This document shows positions 1 through 12,785 of a stretch of 26,347 bases of DNA, piece by piece. The stretch comes from Spirogloea muscicola. Its lineage: Eukaryota > Streptophyta > Zygnematophyceae > Spirogloeales > Spirogloeaceae. The stretch covers positions 193,071 to 219,417 of the forward strand of contig WELB01000128.1 of assembly GCA_009602725.1 (NCBI GenBank). The letters run 5' to 3'. How positions within the stretch are numbered: the first letter of the stretch is position 1; each line of letters begins with the position of its first letter. Made by a program: the position numbers and the translations under genes. The notes under the pieces are model-generated. The model had not been told where the DNA came from and made no database searches. It worked only from the letters and a program-made list of their open reading frames with translations.

Positions 1-2
1 GC

Positions 3-482
3 GCCCTTGACGCGGCGCCGCCGCCGCCGCCGCCGCCCCCACCGGCCATGGCCGCCGTCAGCGGCATCCCAAGCGGCGACGGCAGCGGAAGCTTCTCCGA
101 GTCGGCTCTCCTGCCGCTCTCCGCGGCGACCACCAGCGGCAGCTGCCTCAGCGGCCGTGACGCAGCACCACTGCAGCTTCTCCACGAGCAGTTCCTCGGC
201 ATCGCTGCCGCTGCAGGCGAGCCGCCACTGCCTTGGTGGACCAGCGGAAGCGCCATGGCCGCCATGACCGCGGCCGCTGGGGCCGGCGAGCTGCTGCCGC
301 CGACGCCGCCTGCCCCCTCGCCGGAGCTCGAGCTCTTGGGGCTGGCTGGCAACGGTGGCAACGGCGGCGCCGGCAGTGATACCGTGACGGCGGGCGAGGG
401 CCATGACCTGCTTGCGTTGCTGCGCGCCATGGTCGCCGACGAGCTCTGCCGGCACGGCAGCGCCTGTGACGCTGCTGACTGA
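3..482 (+). CDS. C-terminal part of an unidentified protein (5'-truncated)
   Basis: The frame is open from the left edge to a TGA at 480-482, about 159 residues, so the true start may lie outside the window; the ATG at 48 is only the first internal one. The visible protein opens with a run of about ten prolines, then is Ala/Gly/Ser-rich with no recognisable domain, and ends in a more ordinary helical-looking tail (DLLALLRAMVADELCRH). Third positions are strongly G/C, as in the confirmed exons here, which supports coding on this strand. Low-complexity tails like this are common in algal regulatory proteins, but I do not recognise the family. It could be a single last exon. The next gene is convergent on the minus strand and ends at 1012. 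Confidence 0.45.
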   Translation, partial: ALDAAPPPPPPPPPAMAAVSGIPSGDGSGSFSESALLPLSAATTSGSCLSGRDAAPLQLLHEQFLGIAAAAGEPPLPWWTSGSAMAAMTAAAGAGELLPPTPPAPSPELELLGLAGNGGNGGAGSDTVTAGEGHDLLALLRAMVADELCRHGSACDAAD

Positions 483-1011
483 AATCAATTAGTGGCCAAA
501 TAGGAAATACAAGTAGAGTGACAGGGGTGGCCGCTGCCGGGACGTCGGCCGATGTGACCGCGCTCGGCGGTGTTAGCGCCGCTTCCCGTCACAGTCACAG
601 CAATAAGCCGTCTTAGTATTGCCATTGGTTGTCATAACCAGCGGCACGACGCAACAATAACAGGCAATTATAGCTGACGATGCAAGTAATTCTCATATAC
701 TTGCATCCAATGGCCGCTACCAATTGCTGCCACTTTTATTCTAGTGGCTGATGTAGTCCAGCTGCCACTCCAAAATTGGCGGCTGACATTATTGGGAGGC
801 CACATTCGATGTCGCCCCAAAGCAGCAGTTTGTGCGCTCGCCTCAATGAACTTTGGACGTTGGAAGTAATTATGTGGGCAGATTGCATCGACAAATATGC
901 GCTGATCTTAACAGCATTCGGGCAGGCAACAGTAGCAATCTCGCAGTGAATTACGGCCATAGTGAAAGCAATGACATTGGTGCACTAATCCCAATGTCAC
1001 ATAGCGGCCAG
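483..1011. other. Intergenic stretch, no gene seen
   Basis: This AT-richer stretch lies between two convergent genes and should hold both 3' untranslated regions. Short open frames here lack the G/C third-position bias of the exons and match nothing I recognise. I did not find a TGTAA element on either strand. Confidence 0.5.
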
Positions 1012-4000
1012 TCAGGGTGGCCCGAGGCTTTTGGCGAGCGCAGTATTCCACTGTCGCCAGCGTGCTGCCAGGCTCTTGAGGTTTGCCCGCAGCGTGTCAC
1101 GGAACTCCGCCTGCGCCACCGCCGCCGTCGAGAGCATCACCCAGCAGTCGAGCAGCCAGTGCAGGCCAGCGGCACCAAAGGCCAAGTCGTTATCCTAACC
1201 ATAAACCTACACCCTAACCCTAATTCCTAAACTGCCCAACAACGTCATATCGTATCGCATCTGCCTCTGCCTCTGCACTTTGTCACTGTTATTAAGTGAT
1301 AGAGGTCTGTGAAAGTAGTCGAGGTCTACACAGCACAGGCGTCAATGGGCTCGACAAGCCAGCACAGTACAGCTGCCAAGGGGCTCGACGAGGCGCACTT
1401 TGGCAAGGAGGCCGTCCATGGCCGCCTGCAGCAGTTCTCGTCGTGCGTACACGTGCACAAAGTTCCTGTATGACAGGAAGCCAAGCTGCAGGAGAAACAA
1501 AGAGCAGCTGTGAGCGAGGGAGCGGAACCGCGGCGTCAGCAGCGCCTGACGGGCAGCGGCAGTCACCATAACGACGTCCCACAGATTGTCGTCAAAGATG
1601 CCGTCTGCGCCATCCTTGGCCCTGCGCCGCCACCAATGCCGCCGCCGCCACGCCAGCCATCAGCACGCCGGCAAGACTCAGCACAGCAAACCTGGGGCGC
1701 TGGGAGGGGGTGACATTTACTGTGGACGCCGGAATGCACGCTTGCCAAACACCTCCACGGCAGTTCGGATGCAGTACGCAAAGTCGGCTGCCATGGCCCG
1801 GGCCTCCTCGCTGTCCAAGAACTGGTGCCTGAGGAAGCCGCGCAACAACAGCCATCACAGGAGTCTCAGGCCGGCGGCAGCTGCAGTGGCAGAAGCCACG
1901 GGCAGCAGGACAAGAAGTACCTGCGGATCTCGGCATTGAGCCACGCCTTGTTCGGCGTGAAGAAGCCCTCGATGCCGCCCCGGCGGAGCGCAAAGAAGCG
2001 CAGAATCAGCTCGCGATCCCGCATTCTGAAATGGCGCAATTGGGTCGCGAGAGGAAGAGGGAGGGAGGACAGTCACAAGAGGAGAATGGGTGTGAGAAAA
2101 GCAGAGAGGAGTGAGGAAGTAGAGGAGAGAGGAGAGACAGAGGGACGCGGACAAGCGGGCCAAGCCAGGCATTGGCTTCATATCAGCAGTACTTTAGGCG
2201 TTCTCTCATTGTCAGCAGCAAAGTGAGCTGCTTGGGGCAGCCCATGTCAGGAGGAGGGAGGGGAGGCAGGGGGCCAGCTGCCAGACCTCTTGTGCGGCGC
2301 ATCAAGCCTCAGCGCCTGCTGCATGTGAGTGTTCTTGACAAGCTCCTCCAGCAGATCGTTGTAGCTGCGGCGCAGAGAGAGAAGGCCTGGCCCATCAGCC
2401 GCTGCTCCTGGCCCGTGGAGCCATGGCGTACCACAGGAGCGCGGTCATGCACCAACCCCACTAGGCTGCCACGGCAGGACCTCTGCCACAACGCTACTGC
2501 TTCAACTGGATGTCAAGAGGAGCAGGTGCCACCTGCCCTGGAAGATGCAGTTCCGGAGCTCCTGCTCGTTGAGCTGCTCCACCCATGGATGGCCACGCCG
2601 CCGAGCTGTGCTCGAAGTGAGTGCGCGAGCGGCCACTGAGCTCGTCGGTGGCTGCCCACGCTGGATGGCCAGCCAGTGGCCAATCGAACCTGACTAGGCG
2701 GTCTGTGGACCTGGGGCGTAGGGATGTGAGTAAGACTTGCGAAGCGCACCTGCGTGGACCCCATGTTCAGCCGCTCGAAGACCTGGAAAGCGCAGAGCAA
2801 CGAGCGTCATTGTGCACTTCGGCGGCTTGGACTCTAAGTCGATACATGAAGCATGGTCCAACTAGCCAGCAGCCGAATAAATGCACCTCAAAGACAACGT
2901 CGTCGTCTGAGTGCCGCGAAATGGTGTGCACGTTGAGCGCAAAGTCCTGCATGGCCTGGGCCTCAGCGTGGCGGTCCGCAGATGGGTCATCAAGATGAGT
3001 ATTGTCAATCTCTTGAAAGGTCAAGGCCAAGCTGTTGATTACAGGTATGTTGGCTTAGAGGTCAAGGTGCACCCTGTCAAGCAAAAAGGCCGCATGACAC
3101 GATGGATGCAGGACAAATGACCAGCTGGGAAGACCCCAAGATGGTTGCCAGCTTCATGGTATTGGTCAAGCTGATCTTAGCAGCATCATTGCCTACTTTT
3201 GTTCGTTGACAATGATGGAAACAATATCCCAACTGCTGCCAGCCGCAAGGACAGTTGGGGTGAGGCTGACCTCTTTGCTGCTCTCGTCAAGGTCGCAGTA
3301 CTTCAGCCCATTCAGCTGCCAGTAAGCCCACAGCAGGCGAGCAGGTCCTATATCAAGCATTAGACTTTCGCCATGTGGGGTTTATGGTCTGGACAGTGTG
3401 CTCAGTCAGTTGAGATTGAGGTCAAGGTCATGGCCAAGGCTGTGCTTTGTGGTTTGTGGGGTGTGCAGGCAGCAGCCACACCTTGCCACAAGGGAGCGCA
3501 GCAAAGGTAAGATGTATTCTGAGCGATCCTAAACCCTAGACCCGAGCTTTGAAATCGTACCCAAATTATCCACCTGAGCCTTAAAGCTATATACAACGGC
3601 CAGTAACCCTCCAATTACACAATTGGCCCCAAATGTTTGCTCTACCTTGTGGAGGACCTCAAGGCCAGTGAGGGAGAATTCCGTTCCGTCAGGGAATCGC
3701 GCCTCCACAATGTACGACCTGGTGGAGGTGGCCGACCGGACTACTCAGGTGAACTTCTTTTCGAGGACTGCCAAGTCAGCTATAGCTGTTGCCTAGATGG
3801 TCGGGAGCTAAGAAGGCAGCAGTAATGGCCATTAAAGTTGCATTAGTTGAAATATGAGAGTCCATGTCGACTGCAATCTGTAACCGTTGTTCAATATCAG
3901 GGCTTTGGTCTCAGAGAATGGCTCCGTTTGGGAGGGCCTGATATTTCAGTGCGGTGCGCACCAGATACTTGTGAGCCTCTGCTTGCCATCCACGACCTCC

Positions 4001-5385
4001 AGGATGCCCCTGATACAAAAGCGGCAGCATATGAATTGTCAGCGACCCCCCGCCCTGCTGCATCTTGTCGTGGGCCCTTTCCTAGCACGGCCGCACGAGC
4101 CGCCTGCATGCAGTGGTTGAGCTAAAGGAGGCCATCGGTGGGCGCCGGCGCGCACTTCTCGCGCTCGTGGAAGAACATGGTGGGCACAGGGATGTTGAGC
4201 AGCAGTGACTCGATGAGCTTGCTGGCCGTCTTCTTGTCCCACACAAAGTCCCGCTGCAAAGCAATTGCCACCGGAGTGCAAGCCGCAATGAGCGCTGTCA
4301 GATCAGCCGAGGCAATACAATGCAGATGCTAACGACGGCAGCATCGACGACGGCGGCAGCAGCAGAAGGAGTGCAGGTTTCAGCAAAGGATACCTGGTAG
4401 GACGGCCGCAGGTCCAGCTTCCCGCGCTTGATCTTGTCCAGCACGGAGCTAACAGTAAAATCTGCGGCGCAAGGCGAGCCGAAACAGAGGCTCTATCAAT
4501 GCCGGCCGTCATGACGTGCGGAATGGCCAGCTGGCTGGCCAATCCATTGCAGTTAGCAGTGCACACGCCTGCCTGAAGTGCTTGATCAGGAGGAGCCTTG
4601 ATTGTCCTTGACCTGAAATCTAATCGAATTTTTGCCCAGCATAACAACCCGATGTTGCACAATCTTAGACACTGAATGCTTACCTCCAGCGTCAAATAGA
4701 CCCAATTATTGAGCAACTGATTTCCGCCTCAGAGAGCACTTGTCTGATTACTCCCCAATTTGGCCATTATATGCTCTAACTGCGGAACGTAGGTGCCCTT
4801 TGCTGCTGGCGCGCCAGCTGGCGGCTGCATAGCGGCGCGGTGGGATTAAGGCGGCGGTATCTCACCGGCCTTGCTGATCTGTAGCACCTTCTCGCCGGAG
4901 ATGACGCGCTTCTCCAGCAGCGGGAGGGTCTGCGGCGCCACCTCGCCGGCCGCGGCCCGGACGTCGGCGCCGCCGCCCTCGCCGTCGCTGCCGGCCTCCT
5001 CGTAGCTGTCGCTGTCGGCGCCGTCGTCGTCGTCGCCCACAAAGCCGCTCCCCTTGCTCTCGGCAATGCTGCCTTTGTCTTCGCCGTCAGAGCCGCCGCC
5101 AATGCCGCTGCCGTCGTCGCCTCCTTGGAGCGGCCACGCCGTCCTCTCGGATCTGACGACAGCCGGCGGCAGGGCGCAGCGGCGGCGGCGGCTGCGGCAC
5201 TGCCATGGTGGGTCCCGCCAGCTCCATGACCGGCCGCCGCTGCTGCCCTCGACGCCTCCCGCCGCCACAACTCTCGCCTCTGGCCGTCGCCGCTGTCGCC
5301 CAAATGCCGACACGGCCGTGAGACGGCGGCTGCAGAGTCCGCCACAGCCGAGCACCGCCACCGTCGCCGTCGCTGCCGCTGGCAT
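1012..5385 (-). CDS. DUF262 (GmrS/ParB-like) domain protein, 15 exons
   Basis: Exons, minus strand: 5385-4866, 4461-4394, 4253-4156, 4009-3962, 3718-3646, 3315-3271, 2955-2887, 2782-2750, 2573-2533, 2364-2287, 2025-1921, 1828-1721, 1621-1567, 1485-1399, and 1110-1012 (the last may begin at 1194). All junctions are GT-AG and keep phase, giving 508 or 536 residues. Exon 1 encodes about 170 residues that are Arg/Ala-rich then acidic, possibly an organelle-targeting leader. DUF262 follows: KIKRGKLDL near 182, RDFVWDKK near 197, IESLLLNIPVP, then VVDGKQRLTSIW at 234-245, the family's DGQQR signature with Q changed to K. Later blocks include FERLNMGSTQ, LNEQELRNCIFQG, YNDLLEEL and MRDRELILRFFA. In bacterial GmrSD systems this domain binds NTP and usually precedes a DUF1524 HNH nuclease; none is seen here. 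The start at 5385 opens the leader; an in-frame ATG at 5475 is possible. Family confident; function unknown. Confidence 0.88.
1199..1230. repeat. Degenerate telomere-like motifs (CCCTAA type) in the last DUF262 intron
   Basis: Imperfect repeats such as ACCCTAACCCTAA lie next to a possible acceptor of the last exon of the DUF262 gene. They resemble decayed green-algal telomere repeats and recur in many introns of this window. Confidence 0.6.
3527..3541. repeat. Short telomere-like motif in a DUF262 intron
   Basis: CCTAAACCCTAGACCC lies in the intron between exons 5 and 6 of the DUF262 gene, about 100 bases from the exon 5 donor. Confidence 0.5.
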
Positions 5386-5644
5386 CGAGCGCCAGGACCT
5401 GCTGGGCGGCCCTCGACTGTCGCCGCTGTCCCAGCTGGCCAAGGAGTGCGTCGCTAACACTGCTGACAGGAGCACGCTCAGCAGGGCTGCCTCTAGAGTC
5501 GCTCAGCTGGTGTTAGCACTTGACTGGTCAGGAGCTGACTGGTCAGCCCCACGAGCGATGATAATATACCTTCCCATTCTAAGTCAATTTCTGCTCACAT
5601 TGTACCAGAATGATATCTTATGCGCCTTGCGGAAAGGAGAATGG

Positions 5645-5830
5645 AGTGTGTAAGTATTAGCTGATGGAGGGCCTGAGTGGCCAAGTACAAAGGCCAGCAC
5701 TTTGACAGATGTGCATTACCTGCTGCTGAGCTGACCCGCTCAGTAAACACGAGTCAGCATGTAGAGGTCGCTAACTGATGCCCGAATACCAGACGGCGAC
5801 TGACAAGCCCTTGTGCCAATGGGAGAAAAG
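5645..5830 (+). repeat. Dispersed repeat R1, copy 1
   Basis: It shares ordered blocks with copies near 13.2 kb and 19.5 kb: ATGGAGGGCCTGAGTGGCC, AAGTACAAAGG, ACCTGCTGCT, GCTGACCCGCTCAGTAA, then AGGTCGCTAACTGATGCCC and a block ending in CTTGTGCCAATGGGAGA (5810-5826). A fragment (GGCCAAGTACAAAGGCAAAG) follows near 5868. There is no coding capacity and no recognisable transposase, so it is a short non-autonomous repeat of unknown class. The final 17 bases recur at 6691-6707, beyond the minisatellite. Confidence 0.75.
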
Positions 5831-6027
5831 ATCTCGTGTATTTGAAACAATCGAAGGCCACTATGGCCAAGTACAAAGGCAAAGCACATCAAATGACGTA
5901 GCAGCTAGCATCTAGCAGCTACTGGAGCTGCAGGAGAAGTAGGGCGGCAGCAGTGGCAGACGAAGGGATGGGGGGAAAGGGAGGGCCGGCAGAGCCCCTG
6001 GGGCCCTTTCCTGAAGCTCCTTTCCTG

Positions 6028-6109
6028 CCTTTCTTTCCTTCCCTTCCCTTTCCTTTCCTTTCCTCCTTTCCTTTCCTTTCCTTTCTTTTCCTTTCCTTTC
6101 CTTTCTTCT
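6028..6109 (+). repeat. 82-base homopyrimidine tract, (CCTTT)n-like
   Basis: There are 82 consecutive C/T bases, mainly CTTTC pentamers, with no purine. Homopyrimidine-homopurine tracts of this length with partial mirror symmetry can form triplex (H-DNA). The tract runs directly into the left arm of the hairpin at 6104-6165. Confidence 0.95.
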
Positions 6110-6165
6110 AGCAGCTCCAGAAGCGGATGCAGTTTCCTGCATCCGCTTCTGGAGCTGCTAGAAGA
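6104..6165. repeat. Inverted repeat with 29-base arms and a 4-base loop
   Basis: Arms at 6104-6132 and 6137-6165 are perfectly complementary around the loop TTTC. The right arm is the normal unit junction of the minisatellite (CCGCTTCTGGAGCTGCTAG); the left arm is the same junction inverted. A fold-back or template-switch during repeat expansion would produce this. Confidence 0.95.
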
Positions 6166-6714
6166 TTGAGGCAGTAGCAGTGGCAGGAGGAATGGAGGGT
6201 GGGGGGGAAAGAGGGCTGGAAGTGCCGATTGGGGCATAGCCGACCTGTCCTGCCGGAGCTGCTGTAGGAGTCGGACAGCAGTGGCAGGAGGGATGGCATG
6301 GGGGGGAAGGAGGGCCGGAAGCGCCGCTGAGGGCTTTGTCGACCTGGCCTGCGTCTGTTGCAGGAGCTGCAAGAGGAGTGGAGCAGCAGCAGTGGCAGGA
6401 GGGGTGGCGGGGATGGGAAGGAAGGCCGGAAGTGCCAATGAGGGCCTTGTCGACCTGTCCTGTGTCTGCTTCTGGAGCTGCTAGAGGAGTGGGGCAGCAG
6501 CAGTGGCAGGAGGGATGGCGAGGGGGGGAAAGAGGGCTGGAAGTGTCAATGGGGGCCTTATAGACCTGTCCTGCGTCCGCTGCTGGAGCTGCTAGAGGAG
6601 TGGGGCAGCAGCAGTGGCAGGAGGGATAAGGGAGGGGGGAAGGAGGGCCGGAAGTGCCGCTGGGGGCCTTGTTGACCCGTCCTGCGTCCACTTGTGCCAA
6701 TGGGAGAGGAAGGT

Positions 6715-7144
6715 CAAGGAAGGGCGCACCGAAGGAGCAGGGCAGCGGCACTTAGAAGTTGGCGGCAGCGGTGATCACATCGACAGCGGCGCCCTTGCGG
6801 TGGCACGGCACTCGAGCAGGCGCGCTTGCTTGCCGCCTTGCTTTCTAGATCCTATGGGCTGGTTGTTATGCTCCGTGTGCCGGGATTTTATTCCGTTTCC
6901 ACCTTGCTGGGCCTAGCCCCAGAAGGAGCTGCGGCCAGCGAGTGTTGCTAGCACAGAAGCACCTCTTACTCACTTCCACTCACAGTAATTGCTAATTGCA
7001 GTGCGGACCACCTTGGACGCAAACCGCCATGGTAGCGCGCATGACAGGTGCGGCTCGTGCAATGTCCGGTGCGCGAAAGAGGTCCTCTCAAGTAGGAGAA
7101 GGTGCCAGCATGCTGCAGCAGTGGCGAGCATGCCAGGCAGAGCG
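6715..7144. other. No firm gene; possible short minus-strand exon near 6752
   Basis: On the minus strand a short frame with exon-like codon use ends at a TAA (6752-6754) in GAAVDVITAAANF. It could be a last exon of the zinc-finger gene or an unrelated remnant; I could not join it in phase to any confident exon. Nothing else is recognisable. Confidence 0.25.
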
Positions 7145-7844
7145 TCAATCCCGGTCCTCGCCGGTGCGACCGCCGCTGGGCAGGCTGCCGCCACAACCCC
7201 AGCCTGTCGCATTAGTGTCGTCCTCCTCGTCGCACTCACCCTCGTCCTCGCCCTCGTCACTGGCAGGGCCATGGCCGGCCTCGGCCCCACCAAAGGTCCG
7301 AGCGTGCTTGCGCAGCGTGGCCCTGCTCGCGAAGTCGGCGCCGCACGTGCACAGCCAGACGCGGCCGCATAGCTTGGCATGCACGTTCAAGTCCGCCGCC
7401 ACGCCATACCGCTTCCCGCACCTGTCACACTGCCGCCACGACCAGCCACGGCCGCCGACGACCGCCCCAGCGAGAACCCCTGTCAGCTGGCAAGCCCGTG
7501 GGTTTCACTCGTCGCCAAGGTTTGCATGTTAGAATTGCGGTTTAAGAGTAGAAGTGTAGGGGTTTAAGGATGAGGATTTAGGGATTTAGGATTTAAGACT
7601 ATGGTTAGTTTTGAGGCTTTTGTGATTTAGGGCGGCAGCAGTGTTAGCGGCAGTAAGCAGCAATGCGACATGTGGGTTATCAAATAGGGGCTAATGATCA
7701 GGTTAAGGGCTACGATTAGTTGGACACCTTGTGGCGCTTCTCGCCGTGGCAGCGCTTGTAGTGCTCCGTGGCGCCGGCGAGGTCCTTGAGCGGCAGCCCG
7801 AACTCGGCGCTGCGCACGCAGCCTGGCTCGGGGCAGTACGCCGG
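7145..7844 (-). CDS. STOP1/WIP-type C2H2 zinc-finger protein, 5'-truncated
   Basis: Two exons are clear: 7844-7728 and 7429-7145, joined in phase 0 (donor GTGTCC, acceptor GGCAG). The joined product carries three finger-like units: a CPEPGC...HYKRCHGEKRHK block, KCDRCGKRYG...HAKLCG, and WLCTCGADF...GH. The spacing, the HYKR.H block, the CxC final finger and the trailing GGAEAGHGPA match plant STOP1/WIP transcription factors, nuclear DNA-binding proteins known for acid and aluminium responses. The first finger (a YxCxxCxKxFKR-type unit in relatives) should lie upstream, but that space is occupied by KEA-like exons and an ambiguous base. The tail is acidic and ends GEDRD; a good donor (GGTGAGTG) inside it allows an alternative ending. 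Function in this organism is inferred. Confidence 0.75.
7555..7632. repeat. Telomere-like TTTAGG motifs inside the zinc-finger intron
   Basis: GGATTTAGGGATTTAGGATT and neighbouring variants fill part of the intron between the two zinc-finger exons. Orientation and spacing are imperfect, as in other introns here. Confidence 0.7.
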
Positions 7845-7880
7845 CTGCGGCGGCGATGGCGCCGCCGCTGCCGCCGCGGC

Positions 7881-7881
7881 N
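7881..7881. other. Single ambiguous base (N)
   Basis: This is the only non-ACGT base in the window. It lies exactly between the last KEA-like exon found (ending 7931) and the first zinc-finger exon found (starting 7844), both on the minus strand, in a GCC-rich stretch. Confidence 1.
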
Positions 7882-7930
7882 CACCAAGTGCCTAGAAAGC
7901 TGTCAGGAGATGCAGGGAAAAGATCAGGAC

Positions 7931-8664
7931 CTGGGATTCAGCCACTGTTGTGTTGAAGTTGCTCCCAACCTCAGCTTCATTGGCTGCAGATTGCAACAAA
8001 AAGCAAGACGGCCAGTAACCTTCAAATTCTTGCTTTAACAGGAAATTCGTACTGATCCTGTTGTCTCTGATCATTTTGAGCCTTTTGATCCTATGTGACG
8101 TGCAGTACCTTGATCAGAAGACTTGAAGGGCAAGCTGCGTGTCAGAGACAAGCCCCTAGCCTTGCCATTAATAAATATGGTGGGCTTACAGTAGACACTT
8201 ACCGATCTCGCTCTACAATTACGACGCATCGTTTGTGAGGACTAATTGTGAAGACATACACAAGACATATAAGCTGAGCTGCAAAGCACCGCAGCGATGA
8301 AGGGAAGCTTGTAGGGCCAGGTACACTTCATTGGTGCCAAGCTGAACTTTACAAGTAGCACAGGCCAAGTAAACCACAACTCCACTCAGAAGCCGGCTGC
8401 TCTCCGTTGCAATGTGACCAGGGCTTGAGGCATACGACAGCGCTCACCTTCGCTAGGGTCGTTATCGGGGAACTCCTTCTCCAGCACCCGGTCAATGATG
8501 TCAGCGAGGCTACCGGCGCTCGGCGCGTCCCTCTCCTCAATGTCGTACTCCGGCGCCACCTCCCGCCCATCCTCGACGTCTGCCGCTGAGGTACCGACGG
8601 CGACGAGGAGCACAATCACGGCAGCGGCCAGCCGCCGAGGAAGGCGAGCCGCCGCCCGCGCCAT
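7931..8664 (-). CDS. KEA4/5/6-type K+ efflux antiporter, N-terminal exons only
   Basis: Exon 1 is 8664-8448, exon 2 is 7983-7931, joined in phase 1 (donor GGTGAGC, acceptor TCTGCAG). Exon 1 begins with a signal-peptide-like sequence (MARAAARLPRRL, then AAAVIVLLVAVGTSAA), then an acidic stretch and LADIIDRVLEKEFPDND; across the junction come EANEAEVG and FNTTVAESQ. This is the order seen at the start of plant KEA4-6, endomembrane K+/H+ antiporters of the CPA2 family. Relatives continue with a VLETVARV-type block and about 12 membrane helices plus an NADH-binding-type region, but no such exon follows toward lower coordinates. The start is chosen because the signal peptide begins there; an in-frame ATG upstream (8934) would add a polyalanine tract. 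Its 5' end faces the DUF1295 gene head to head. Confidence 0.7.
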
Positions 8665-8673
8665 GCTGCCGTC

Positions 8674-8762
8674 GTGCCCCGCAGTCCTAGACACGGCGCC
8701 GTCGACGCACGACCGCGGCCGCCCGCTGGAGGCCGCCAGTGCCGCTTTCGCCGCCGCCGCCT

Positions 8763-8800
<38 letters not shown>

Positions 8801-11584
8801 TCACGGCCGTCGCGCTGCCGCTGCCGCAGACGGAGAAGTTCTTCGACCTCACCGGTGCACTCACGTTCCTCGCCCTCGCCGGCCTCTCGCTCGCCGCGCG
8901 GCCTGACTGGCCGCCCCGCCAGGTCCATTGCCACGCCGCCGCCGCCGCCGCCGCCGCTCCGGGCCTCCCGCGACTGCCTGAGCAGCTCTGCCGGGGCTCT
9001 GGCATGACGGCGTCTTTGAGGATTTAGGGCTAGGGCTTAGGGCTTAGGGCTGGGGCCGCAGAGGAGCCCGACCTAGCACCCTGACCCTCGACGAGCCTCT
9101 CTTTGAAGGTCTAAGGCAAAACCTAAATCAATTTTTCATACATCAATATATATACACACATACCCTCGTACATATTACATTTGCAGGACGGTCAGTGGGC
9201 ACAGTGCTGGCTGGTCTTACCGGAGAGCGATGAGCCCTGTGCGACCTCTTCGAATTGATGGGATTACTTTACCAATCCAAGGCTCAAGCTCAGCCCCATC
9301 CTGAGCTCAGTTCCAATTTGTGCATTTTGTGCAGGTCGCGGCCACCGTGCTGGTCTGTCTGTGGGCTGCGCGGCTGGGAACCCACCTCTTTGCCCGCGTT
9401 CTCCAGGTGCGAGGCGCTCGCATAGCCTAAATCCTAAACCCTTAACACCATACACCCTAAGTTTTAACCCTAAGCCGTTGACTCCTGGACTATCAACTCC
9501 TGGTTGTTATTATGTAAGCCTGCACGGCTATCACCGTGTTGTCCTCTGTTATGGGGCTGTTACGGCGTACTAATCACAATTCTTTGCTTCAGTAATGGAA
9601 GCATTGCCTATCTGACCTTGGCTGCGTCGTGCTCGCAAGCTACCAGGTTGGGCGCGACAGCCGCTTCGATGGCGTCCGCGACAATCCACCCTGGTTCTTC
9701 GCCTTCTGGACCATACAGGTTGCCAAGTCCATCCAGTCGCAGACTTAACTGCTTGATCATTTTACAACATTCATCTAGATACTTCAGTCAAGGCTCTAAT
9801 TTCTCTAGCTCTAGCACTCCTCTCTGGCTGCTATTTGTACTCCTGGACCTTGTACCAAGCTCAAGAGTGGCAAGACCAAGTAGAAGTAACTTCGTCTGGG
9901 GATGCTGCTCAAAGCTAAAGCCTCACCCTAAAGTTCGTTACATTGATGCCTTGCTTAGACTTCGAAGCTCACCAGCTCCAAATTAACAGGCGTTAAGGGT
10001 TTACAGCAAGCTGAGCGTGAGTACACAGAAGCATTCTTTCAGTCTTTGGAGTGGCTGAAAAGCAGACACGCACGTTGCTCTATACTTGACTTATTCTACG
10101 TGTTGATCAGGCAATGTGGATATATATGGTGCTACTGCCAGTCCTGCTGCTCAACTCTGGCGGCCTTAATGTGCTGTGGCCTGGCTGGACCGACTTGCTC
10201 GGTGCGAACACAAGACTTTGACATGCTGGGCAGCGCTTGACATCCTCACTGGAACCGCGTTCGACGGAGGTACTGCTGATGTTAAAGGATGAGGCTTCAG
10301 GATCGACTTTTCCAGGAACACATACCCGTTTCCTGCTTTGATCCTCAGGATTGGGCGTGTGGATGGCTGGTTTTGCCATAGAAACGATTGCCGATTACCA
10401 GAAGAACAGGTGAATAGCTCGATTTGCACCTGTATTAGTGGACACATTACATTGTAGATCTAGCTGCAAGAGCAATTGCCAGAACATGACCAAGGGTGTC
10501 AGCCTTGACTTGCAATTTGGGACTCTGTTTGGCCGCTGAGCACGTGATACACAATACTGCGGCTGGACATTATGCAGTCTACGACACTTTTTGACCGGTT
10601 GATGCCACTCAAAGACCTCCCCTTTCTGTCAAGCCATGCACACTAGCATTGCAGTGTGTAACTTTTGACCTTGCCTGGCATATTACGTGCGAGGGTAACA
10701 GGTTCAGGCAGTTGGACGCCAGCAAGGGGAAGTGGATTGACAGTGGGCTTTGGAGGTATACAGCATATAGCAACCTGCAGATCCCTTGCTTTCAGTGACC
10801 AGTAATTGCTGCCCATCTTATATAACAGCATGAAGGATGGGGAAATGTATGACGTTGCTGACAGGTCTCTTTTTCTCTGCTGTTTTGTGTCCCTGTAGGT
10901 ACAGCAGGCATCCAAATTATTTTGGGGAGATGGTCCTGTGGTGGGGCGTGTACCTGCTGTCGTTCAGGTCCTTGGCTCCCATGGGCCGAGTTATTGGTAA
11001 GTTCCTCAAGCTGAAATTGTGTTGACACGTAAGAGGTGACTATTACAAGTACTTGGCTAATCATAAGAGCCGCCTAGCTGCGTTTTCCAGGTAAGCATGA
11101 GTCAGGAAGCAGCAATTTTGTTAGTCTTCTGTTTGGAGCTCTATGTATCTTCTAGTGCGCAAAATGCTGCAAGAACTTGAGATTCACGTCGCAGTGACAG
11201 TAGAAGTAGGTGCTTTCTGCATTTTGTTGTCAGACACACAAATATTGTTGCATTCGCACTTGCTCTGTGCTTGCAGCTCTCATCAGCCCAGTAGGTACAA
11301 TGTACCTCTTGATAAGAGTTTCTGGGGTGAGCCACTCGACTCTAGTTGCTAGTATTCCAGGATTCCAGGCACGCTGATGCTACAAGTAGAAGGTCTTACT
11401 CTTTTGGGATCTGGTCCCTTCTTGACAAGGAAGGGATCCATATGCTGCGATGCAGATACCTTTGCTAGAGAAAGCAGCGCTCAAGAAGTGGGGCACGGAC
11501 ATGGACTACCAAGAGTACCTGCGCACAACATCAAAGATTATTCCTTGGGTTCCCAAGCAAGGAAGGCGAGCCAAGGTTTTGTGA
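8674..11584 (+). CDS. DUF1295 / steroid 5-alpha-reductase-like membrane protein, 9 exons
   Basis: Exons: 8674-8922, 9335-9406, 9647-9718, 10111-10201, 10349-10409, 10702-10755, 10899-10996, 11277-11326, 11456-11584; all GT-AG, all in phase, 291 residues. Key blocks: QTEKFFDLTGALTF (52-65), GRDSRFDGVRDNP (109-121), FAIETIADYQKNR, GKWIDSGLWRYSRHPNYFGE with the family signature SRHPNYFGE, and a tail VSGIPLLEKAALKKWGTD then YQEYLRTTSKIIPWVPK. DUF1295 proteins are multi-helix membrane proteins related to NADPH-dependent steroid/enoyl reductases and isoprenylcysteine methyltransferases; the substrate is generally unknown. Several hydrophobic segments are visible. The first about 45 residues are Arg-rich from a GCC tract, and CTGCCGCAG at 8821-8829 could be an acceptor, so the true start may lie in another exon. 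A TGTAA follows the stop by about 50 bases. Confidence 0.88.
8735..8803. repeat. GCC trinucleotide tract between divergent genes
   Basis: A long (GCC)n run reads as polyarginine, polyalanine or polyglycine depending on frame and lies at the shared 5' end of the KEA-like and DUF1295 genes. Similar tracts sit at other gene starts (14446-14520, 20703-20740, 26284-26347), so they are probably a 5'-region feature and not conserved protein. Confidence 0.85.
9015..9055. repeat. Telomere-like repeats at start of DUF1295 intron 1
   Basis: TTTAGGGCTAGGGCTTAGGG and a further partial unit lie about 100 bases inside intron 1 of the DUF1295 gene. They are degenerate and not a functional telomere array. 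Confidence 0.75.
9426..9480. repeat. Telomere-like repeats in DUF1295 intron 2
   Basis: CCTAAATCCTAAACCC and AACCCTAAGCC-type motifs begin about 20 bases after the exon 2 donor, in the opposite orientation to those of intron 1. Confidence 0.7.
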
Positions 11585-11631
11585 CTAGAGTGATAAGGTC
11601 TGGGTACTGAACACAGTGCTCAATGTTGACA

Positions 11632-11636
11632 TGTAA
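11632..11636 (+). promoter_or_regulatory. Probable polyadenylation element TGTAA
   Basis: TGTAA, the common green-algal polyadenylation signal, lies 47 bases after the stop of the DUF1295 gene. The motif is short and the assignment rests on position. Confidence 0.5.
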
Positions 11637-11639
11637 TTA

Positions 11640-12785
11640 GGCAGGCGCTAGCTATTCCCACTGCCCGCTGTCAATGTGAACTCTTTTGACAACATTTAAA
11701 TTTGTGATTATTCCTAGCTATTGCTGACGCCTGTTTAATTATGGATCAGGACATGCATTACTCAATAAACTTTTGGTCACAGTGTGGGGACCTAGTAATC
11801 ATACTAGTCACGACTAGGGTCAATGATAGGCACCATGATGGACCTTTTAGTTCTTTAGTAGCTTTCTCAATCGAGCGGGCTAAACCTATTGGCAATGGCT
11901 AAGGAGAGGCATTTCTATCAAGACTGTGTTGCAAGGCCAATTTCAGAAGCAATTGATTTTCTAAGAATTTGTCTTCAGGCACTTGGTGGTCCCAATGACC
12001 AGCAGGCATTTTTCTTGCCGATCGTTACGTGCCATCAGAGTGCCGGCGTGGCGAGCATGGGATGTTGTTGTTGTTTAGCATTCCCACATCAATTGGGACC
12101 TCGTGCAGCCCTTGAGTACGTGCACGCACTTTACGACAGTACGAGCCTGTTTGTCATGCTCTGTGGGTTACTGTCGTGCTCTACCACGGTTAGTAGCATT
12201 GGCACGTCCCTCTGACTCAAATAACCGTATTGGCGACATGCACGTGGCATGTCTCAATCAACTGGATCAATCACTAGTAAGCATTAGGTTTGTATATTAG
12301 TGCCAGTAAAGTACTTGTATACAATCACGAACCAGGGAGGTCGCTACCAATCACGAAGCCAGGGAGGTCGCTACCTACAAGAGGATATGTAGTGTAAGAG
12401 CGGCAGCCAGAAGTCTGGTACAGCAACTGACGATGGAGCACCCAAGATCCAACCTGCACAAGAGACCCCATCGAGGCACGGCACAGCTGCGACCAGATGA
12501 CCACGAAGGAGCTGCCAACAACGACCAGCATTGCCGACCCAGAGTGGCAGCCAAGGCGTGGCAGGCCAGCAAATGCACGGCGAACGCCTGGGAACGCTGG
12601 AACGAGATGGAGAGGCGCATTCAGTGAATCAGCGCAAGCAACCTGGCAGCAGAAAAGCTGGGCTGCTCGCCCTGCTGTCCTTGACGCCGGGTTAGCGCTT
12701 GGAAATGGCCTGAATTGAAGTGGAATTAGAAGCGCTACTTGCTGACGTCTTGGAGAGTAGTTATCCTGCTTTTTGCTCCATCCGG
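11640..12785. other. Intergenic stretch with no recognised gene
   Basis: Open frames here lack exon-like codon use. The stretch 12430-12720 is somewhat GC-richer and has two overlapping plus frames rich in Trp/Arg/Gln (one holding WERWNEMERRIQ), but no family is recognisable. It could be a decayed gene or element. Confidence 0.4.
12323..12375 (+). repeat. Two-copy tandem repeat of 26-27 bases
   Basis: AATCACGAACCAGGGAGG plus TCGCTACC (12323-12348) is repeated immediately with one inserted G (12349-12375). It looks like a recent duplication of unknown role. Confidence 0.95.

What the first reader, a model, noticed from the sequence alone, without database searches (positions are those of the whole stretch)
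7728..8664. KEA antiporter start and STOP1 zinc-finger end abut at an ambiguous base: chimeric join or two broken genes
On the minus strand, two clean, phase-matched KEA4/5/6-like exons (8664-8448, 7983-7931) are followed by no further KEA exons. Then comes an N (7881), then two clean zinc-finger exons (7844-7728, 7429-7145) with no upstream first finger. Each gene lacks exactly the part that should lie on the far side of the N. The simplest reading is an assembly join in a GCC-rich gap; the alternatives are a real rearrangement or a fusion transcript.
Basis: partly seen in the sequence, partly recalled or inferred. Interest (0 to 1): 0.75.

Follow-up and report, generated by a model that had tools for sequence, protein, structure and literature searches.

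The report
Assembly join mimics a fused gene
Two unrelated half-genes sit side by side here almost certainly because the genome assembly was stitched wrongly at a GGC repeat and a one-base gap, so the apparent transporter-to-zinc-finger fusion is an artefact rather than a new gene.

Summary
In detail: two phase-matched KEA-type exons, one N at 7881, two zinc-finger exons, no KEA membrane exons. Bases 8778-7882 (897) are identical to C122:255030-255926, where the gene runs on into transporter exons. Copies on C118 and C266 are 86-88% identical, so the window piece is a fourth, partial copy, bounded by a GGC array and the N. Beyond the array lies a DUF1295 locus (plus strand); of its two sister loci, C182 stops there at a gap and C15 runs, after a nearby GGC array, into a MYB gene. 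Best reading: a contig crossed a GGC array into KEA sequence, ended in ordinary intron, and was scaffolded with a single N to a contig holding the zinc-finger gene. Against: a second predicted duplicate (MYB) was not found; exon phases would permit an in-frame fusion. No reads were available to close the case.

The parts
7882..8778 (-). 897-base piece out of place: 5' end of a KEA-type antiporter gene, duplicate of C122:255030-255926
   Evidence: string-identical to C122; C118 87%, C266 86%; membrane exons on C122
8448..8664 (-). KEA exon 1 (ATG, 217 nt)
7931..7983 (-). KEA exon 2 (53 nt)
   Evidence: not called by the rough model
8749..8827 (.). GGC/GCC array, 26 copies of a 3-base unit; join 1 lies inside it
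   Evidence: identity to C122 ends at 8778, where C122 itself has an N gap; the match to C182 starts at 8749 or 8763, depending on the filter
7881..7881 (.). single N, join 2
   Evidence: exact end of the C122 duplicate
7728..7844 (-). zinc-finger exon a (second finger of an IDD/STOP1-type array)
7145..7429 (-). zinc-finger exon b (third and fourth finger, stop codon)
8749..12532 (+). stretch shared with C182 (84-87%) and, from 8934 to 12434, with C15 (80-82%); holds a DUF1295 gene whose 5' end points at the array
   Evidence: that the exon next to the array belongs to this gene is recalled (no Pfam match for it)
10894..10998 (+). DUF1295 exon piece (PF06966, 43.7 bits, cut-off 20.4)

Best explanation
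It is an assembly artefact made of two joins. The contig that begins at 7882 belongs to the DUF1295 locus. At that gene's GGC array (8749-8827) the assembler crossed, through the shared repeat, into sequence of the KEA gene that belongs to C122, ran on for 897 bases and ended in ordinary intron. The scaffolder then set this contig next to the contig 1-7880, which ends in GCC-rich sequence inside a zinc-finger gene, and wrote one N for a gap of unknown, probably near-zero or negative estimated size. Neither a fusion gene nor two broken genes need exist: the KEA gene continues on C122, and the rest of the zinc-finger gene most likely lies in unassembled sequence. Shown: the identical copy, its two ends, the membrane exons on C122, the different partners of the sister loci. 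Inferred: the assembler's step and the meaning of the single N.
For: (1) 897 of 897 bases are identical to C122:255030-255926, which begins at the first base after an N run of at least 15,530 and continues without a break; PF00999 matches follow at C122:257380-257646 and 259751-259948, and a rough exon pair from C122 gives PF00999 50 bits. (2) The other copies differ by about 13-14% (C118 87%, C266 86%), so identity is out of line with the distances among copies. (3) The duplicate ends exactly at the N; C122 has ordinary intron there and continues. Of 18 gap edges in the stretches fetched, this edge has the lowest GC (0.46); 12 of 18 are at 0.65 or more, against 10.1% of 2308 background windows; 6 of 18 hold a GGC-type run of 12 or more, against 3.5%. 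(4) The neighbour beyond the array is a DUF1295 locus found otherwise only on C15 and C182, not on a KEA contig. C182 stops at an N gap at that array; C15 breaks at a nearby GGC array into a MYB gene. (5) Upstream of KEA the three other copies disagree: N gap on C122, a single N on C266, and on C118 a stretch whose own copies are on C101 and C2.
Against: No reads, so no direct proof. If the MYB piece of C15 arose the same way it should have an identical copy elsewhere; it has none, so the mechanism has one clear case only. A span across another single N (C2:1625625) gave no 100% copy either: one side is the end of a many-copy repeat, the other a stretch shared with C101 and C118. The KEA and finger exons are in matching phase and would give 223 residues in one frame. 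Point 5 would also fit real rearrangements.
Confidence: 0.92

Rival explanations
1. A real, very recent copy of the KEA 5' end (897 bases or more) was inserted at the GGC array of the DUF1295 locus by repeat-mediated recombination; the N is only a small unresolved spot.
For: 100% identity also fits a very young duplication; GGC arrays lie at the start of both the KEA and the DUF1295 gene and could recombine.
Against: The copy ends exactly at an N; the sister locus C15 has a different unrelated gene at nearly the same place; the edge at 7882 is ordinary DNA that is assembled without trouble on C122.
Confidence: 0.05
2. Both joins are right at large scale and the gap at 7881 hides the rest of a second, identical KEA gene, so the window has a fourth KEA copy and a normal zinc-finger gene.
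For: A gap written as one N can be of unknown length; C128 and C15 agree on both sides of the region with nearly equal spacing (13,169 and 13,115 bases).
Against: The equal spacing leaves little room for about 5 kb more (weak, since both distances contain estimated N gaps); a fourth copy would have to be identical to C122 while the other two differ by 13-14%.
Confidence: 0.02
3. A working fusion gene: the KEA leader and N-terminal region spliced to a plant zinc-finger domain.
For: Exon phases match: the four exons give 672 nt and 223 residues in one frame. The other copies keep a GT at the exon 2 donor.
Against: A phase match is 1 in 3 by chance; the fusion needs the assembly to be right at two joins; a secretory-type leader on a DNA-binding domain makes little sense (general knowledge); the unspliced KEA frame stops before the N.
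Confidence: 0.01

Closest known systems
Chimeric contig end through a simple repeat, joined in scaffolding with a minimal N (recalled kind of artefact)
   Same: Identical duplicate of another locus, bounded by a shared repeat and by an N; sister loci disagree beyond the repeat
   Different: Assembler and reads are unknown here, so the step itself is inferred
Plant KEA4/5/6-type potassium/proton antiporter (CPA2)
   Same: The window exons are identical to those of a gene with PF00999 exons on C122
BIRD/IDD zinc-finger transcription factor
   Same: Third finger above Pfam's cut-off (32.8 vs 27 bits); JACKDAW among the PDB matches (38.4 bits)
   Different: Second and fourth finger match no IDD model; first finger not found; generic zinc-finger arrays score higher than JACKDAW
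STOP1/STOP2 zinc-finger factor
   Same: 39% identity in the alignment with a STOP1-like gene of the same genome
   Different: Below both STOP2 cut-offs (21.7 and 14.8 vs 27)

Membership tests
KEA/CPA2 antiporter (window copy) | Na_H_Exchanger membrane domain (PF00999) | tested here: not met
   0 of 40 listed PF00999 matches on C128
KEA/CPA2 antiporter (C122 copy) | Na_H_Exchanger membrane domain (PF00999) | tested here: met
   C122:257380-257646 31.2 bits (cut-off 26.2), 259751-259948 25.1 bits below it; 50 bits for a rough later exon pair
KEA4/5/6 subgroup | subgroup placement by tree | not tested
BIRD/IDD | third C2HC finger (PF22995) | tested here: met
   32.8 bits, cut-off 27
BIRD/IDD | second and fourth finger (PF22996, PF22992) | tested here: not met
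   neither is listed among 10 families at E up to 10; the filters drop most matches above about 0.1
BIRD/IDD | first finger | tested here: inconclusive
   not on this side of the N; the orphan on C132 carries its own second finger
STOP1/STOP2 | PF23115 and PF23118 above cut-off | tested here: not met
   21.7 and 14.8 bits, cut-off 27; a STOP1-like gene on C79 gives 73.3 and 63.5
Assembly misjoin | piece has another home, with flanks that continue the gene | tested here: met
   C122:255030 onward
Assembly misjoin | no read spans the join | not testable with these tools
   no reads held

The most novel reading that the evidence does not exclude
GGC arrays at gene starts recombine in the living genome of this triplicated plant-type organism and move gene starts between loci; here one such event put a KEA leader in frame with a plant zinc-finger array.
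Probability: 0.03. Interest if true: 0.6.

Novelty: not a real feature. Interest (0 to 1): 0.08.

Why it matters
It matters mainly as a warning. Because the exons on the two sides are in matching phase, an automatic gene finder could report a KEA-zinc-finger fusion protein, and a fourth KEA gene, that do not exist. Gene starts with GGC arrays look like weak points of this assembly in the stretches seen, so other odd neighbours at such arrays (for example DUF1295 and MYB on C15) deserve the same doubt.

Tried and rejected
Orphan first finger: a query made from the first finger of the C79 STOP1-like gene gave 6 matches at E up to 10. Five (C79, C70, C21, C7, C37) lie beside later fingers already listed; the sixth (C132:81290-81385, 55%) is followed by a second finger of its own that seems frame-shifted (PF22996 29 bits, cut-off 27), so it is not the missing half. 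The first fingers of the C97, C134 and C459 set were not found by that query, so a miss is no proof of absence.

MYB piece of C15 as a second identical duplicate: expected, not found. Span over the single N of C2: no identical duplicate (only 40 of 154 candidates were scored). The single N at C182:201500 was not examined.

Sisters of the left contig: window 1-5600 has none at DNA level (best other match 71.6 bits), window 6900-7880 none. A first search with 1-6000 was swamped by a repeat at 5635-6000 (40 of 2508 candidates scored). So the zinc-finger side could not be placed by its sisters.

Exon model of C122: home-made and rough. It prolonged exon 1, missed exon 2 and includes doubtful exons; it is used only to show that conserved transporter-like frames follow. 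Of two fragments tried in Pfam one matched nothing. Of five DUF1295-region fragments, one passed the cut-off, one matched below it (12.2 bits) and three matched nothing.

Papers: the fit to a triplicated genome rests on a search listing and passages. Two other searches gave nothing used; one search pointed to the paper. One search for the meaning of a single N found one paper whose passages do not explain it; that some scaffolders write one n for a negative gap is recalled.

Full report
Observation. On the minus strand, exon 1 at 8664-8448 and exon 2 at 7983-7931 give 90 codons with GT and AG splice sites; one N stands at 7881; two zinc-finger exons follow at 7844-7728 and 7429-7145 and end with a stop codon. 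No antiporter membrane exon was found on this contig: a whole-assembly PF00999 search listed 40 matches at E up to 0.001 and none is on C128.

Where the KEA piece belongs. The window is C128:193071-219417 of an assembly of 153,112,186 bases in 471 contigs. A search with 8700-7700 found four places: the window itself, C122 at 100% up to the base next to the N, C118 at 88% and C266 at 86%. A longer query showed that the 100% match covers 8778-7882, and a string comparison confirmed 897 of 897 bases. On C122 the stretch starts at the first base after an N run (15,530 bases of it were seen), so the match cannot be followed further on that side; on the other side C122 runs on past the end of the duplicate without a break. 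The C122, C118 and C266 copies align with one another over about 6 kb, and C122 and C266 carry PF00999 matches there. My rough exon model of C122 shows conserved transporter-like frames up to 261118, one pair of which gives PF00999 50 bits; it missed exon 2 and prolonged exon 1, so it is no clean gene model. With 13-14% divergence between the other copies, identity over 897 bases is not expected (0.87 to the power 897 is about 6e-55, a crude figure): the two identical stretches are one sequence placed twice, or a very young copy.

What lies on the other side. Right of the KEA piece is an array of 26 three-base units at 8749-8827. From there to 12532 the window matches C182 at 84-87% and, from 8934 to 12434, C15 at 80-82%. 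On the plus strand this stretch holds a gene with a DUF1295 domain (43.7 bits at 10894-10998, cut-off 20.4); that the open frame next to the array is its first exon is my recall, since that fragment matched no Pfam family. The whole-assembly search found this stretch only on C128, C15 and C182. C182 runs into an N gap of 10,083 bases at the array; C15 leaves the common sequence at a GGC array about 170-185 bases nearer the gene, enters a MYB gene (60.2 bits) and then meets an N gap of 12,398. So at nearly one place three sister loci show a KEA start, a MYB start and a gap.

The N. The edge on the KEA side is plain intron of GC 0.46, the lowest of the 18 gap edges in the stretches held; 12 of 18 edges have GC of 0.65 or more against 10.1% of 2308 background windows, and 6 of 18 hold a GGC-type run of at least 12 bases against 3.5%.

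Results against. The MYB piece of C15 was expected to have an identical copy elsewhere and has none. A span over another single N (C2:1625625) held no identical duplicate; one side is the end of a many-copy repeat, the other a stretch shared with C101 and C118. The mechanism therefore rests on one clear case.

Large-scale order. C128 and C15 share sequence on both sides of the region, 13,169 and 13,115 bases apart, though some of these matches are repeats and both distances contain N gaps. So contig 1-7880 may well belong here and the zinc-finger gene may be a true neighbour of DUF1295; only the KEA piece is shown to be out of place.

The zinc-finger gene. The third finger passes Pfam's BIRD-IDD model (32.8 bits, cut-off 27); the STOP2 models stay below (21.7 and 14.8, cut-off 27); a STOP1-like gene of the same genome on C79 gives 73.3 and 63.5, and stays below the IDD cut-off with 24.6. 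Eight places of the genome pass the STOP2_3rd cut-off, with 64.6-75.1 bits; the window's does not. Among solved structures the plant match is JACKDAW (38.4 bits), but generic zinc-finger arrays score higher. I call the gene IDD-like, weakly: it is still 39% identical to the C79 gene. No sister copy was found: none at DNA level, and at protein level nothing closer than 41% apart from itself that covers most of the array.

Organism. The source is not given. Many stretches sampled come in three copies: the KEA gene, the DUF1295 stretch, the C118 upstream stretch and two of three STOP1-like sets; one STOP1-like set shows two, and the zinc-finger gene, the MYB piece and window 1-5600 show one. Papers describe Spirogloea muscicola as a streptophyte alga with a triplicated genome (PMC11712027 and PMC7994812, passages), and the IDD subfamily as gained within streptophytes (PMC11712027, passage). 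That this is its genome is my inference and untested.

Fusion. The four exons are in one frame and would code 223 residues. That is a 1 in 3 chance and no evidence for a transcript; without reads it cannot be ruled out by sequence alone.

Verdict. An assembly artefact at 0.92; a young real copy 0.05; a hidden fourth KEA gene 0.02; a working fusion 0.01.

Noticed in passing
L004:3498-4204 (C15:1015997-1016703): The DUF1295 locus runs through a GGC array into the start of a MYB gene, then an N gap; possibly a second misjoin, but the MYB piece has no second copy.
   Followed up: partly
L021:4200-4800 (C132, near 81290): IDD-like first finger and a seemingly frame-shifted second finger, followed by low-complexity sequence; looks like a gene relic.
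   Followed up: partly
window 6142-6688: Minisatellite with a 111-base unit, downstream of the zinc-finger exons; similar sequence on C101.
   Followed up: no
L003:6893 (C266:96392), L020:6626 (C2:1625625), L015:7500 (C182:201500): Three further single-N joins in the stretches fetched; at C2 a many-copy repeat ends at the N, at C266 a repeat-like sequence lies within a few hundred bases of it, C182 was not examined.
   Followed up: partly
window 1-7880: No sister copy at DNA level was found for 1-5600 and 6900-7880, although many sampled stretches of this genome come in threes.
   Followed up: partly
L002 near 1014 (C118:274013): The stretch upstream of KEA on C118 has its sisters on C101 and C2, not next to KEA; C118 stops resembling them about 90 bases before C101 reaches an N gap and C2 a single N.
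   Followed up: partly
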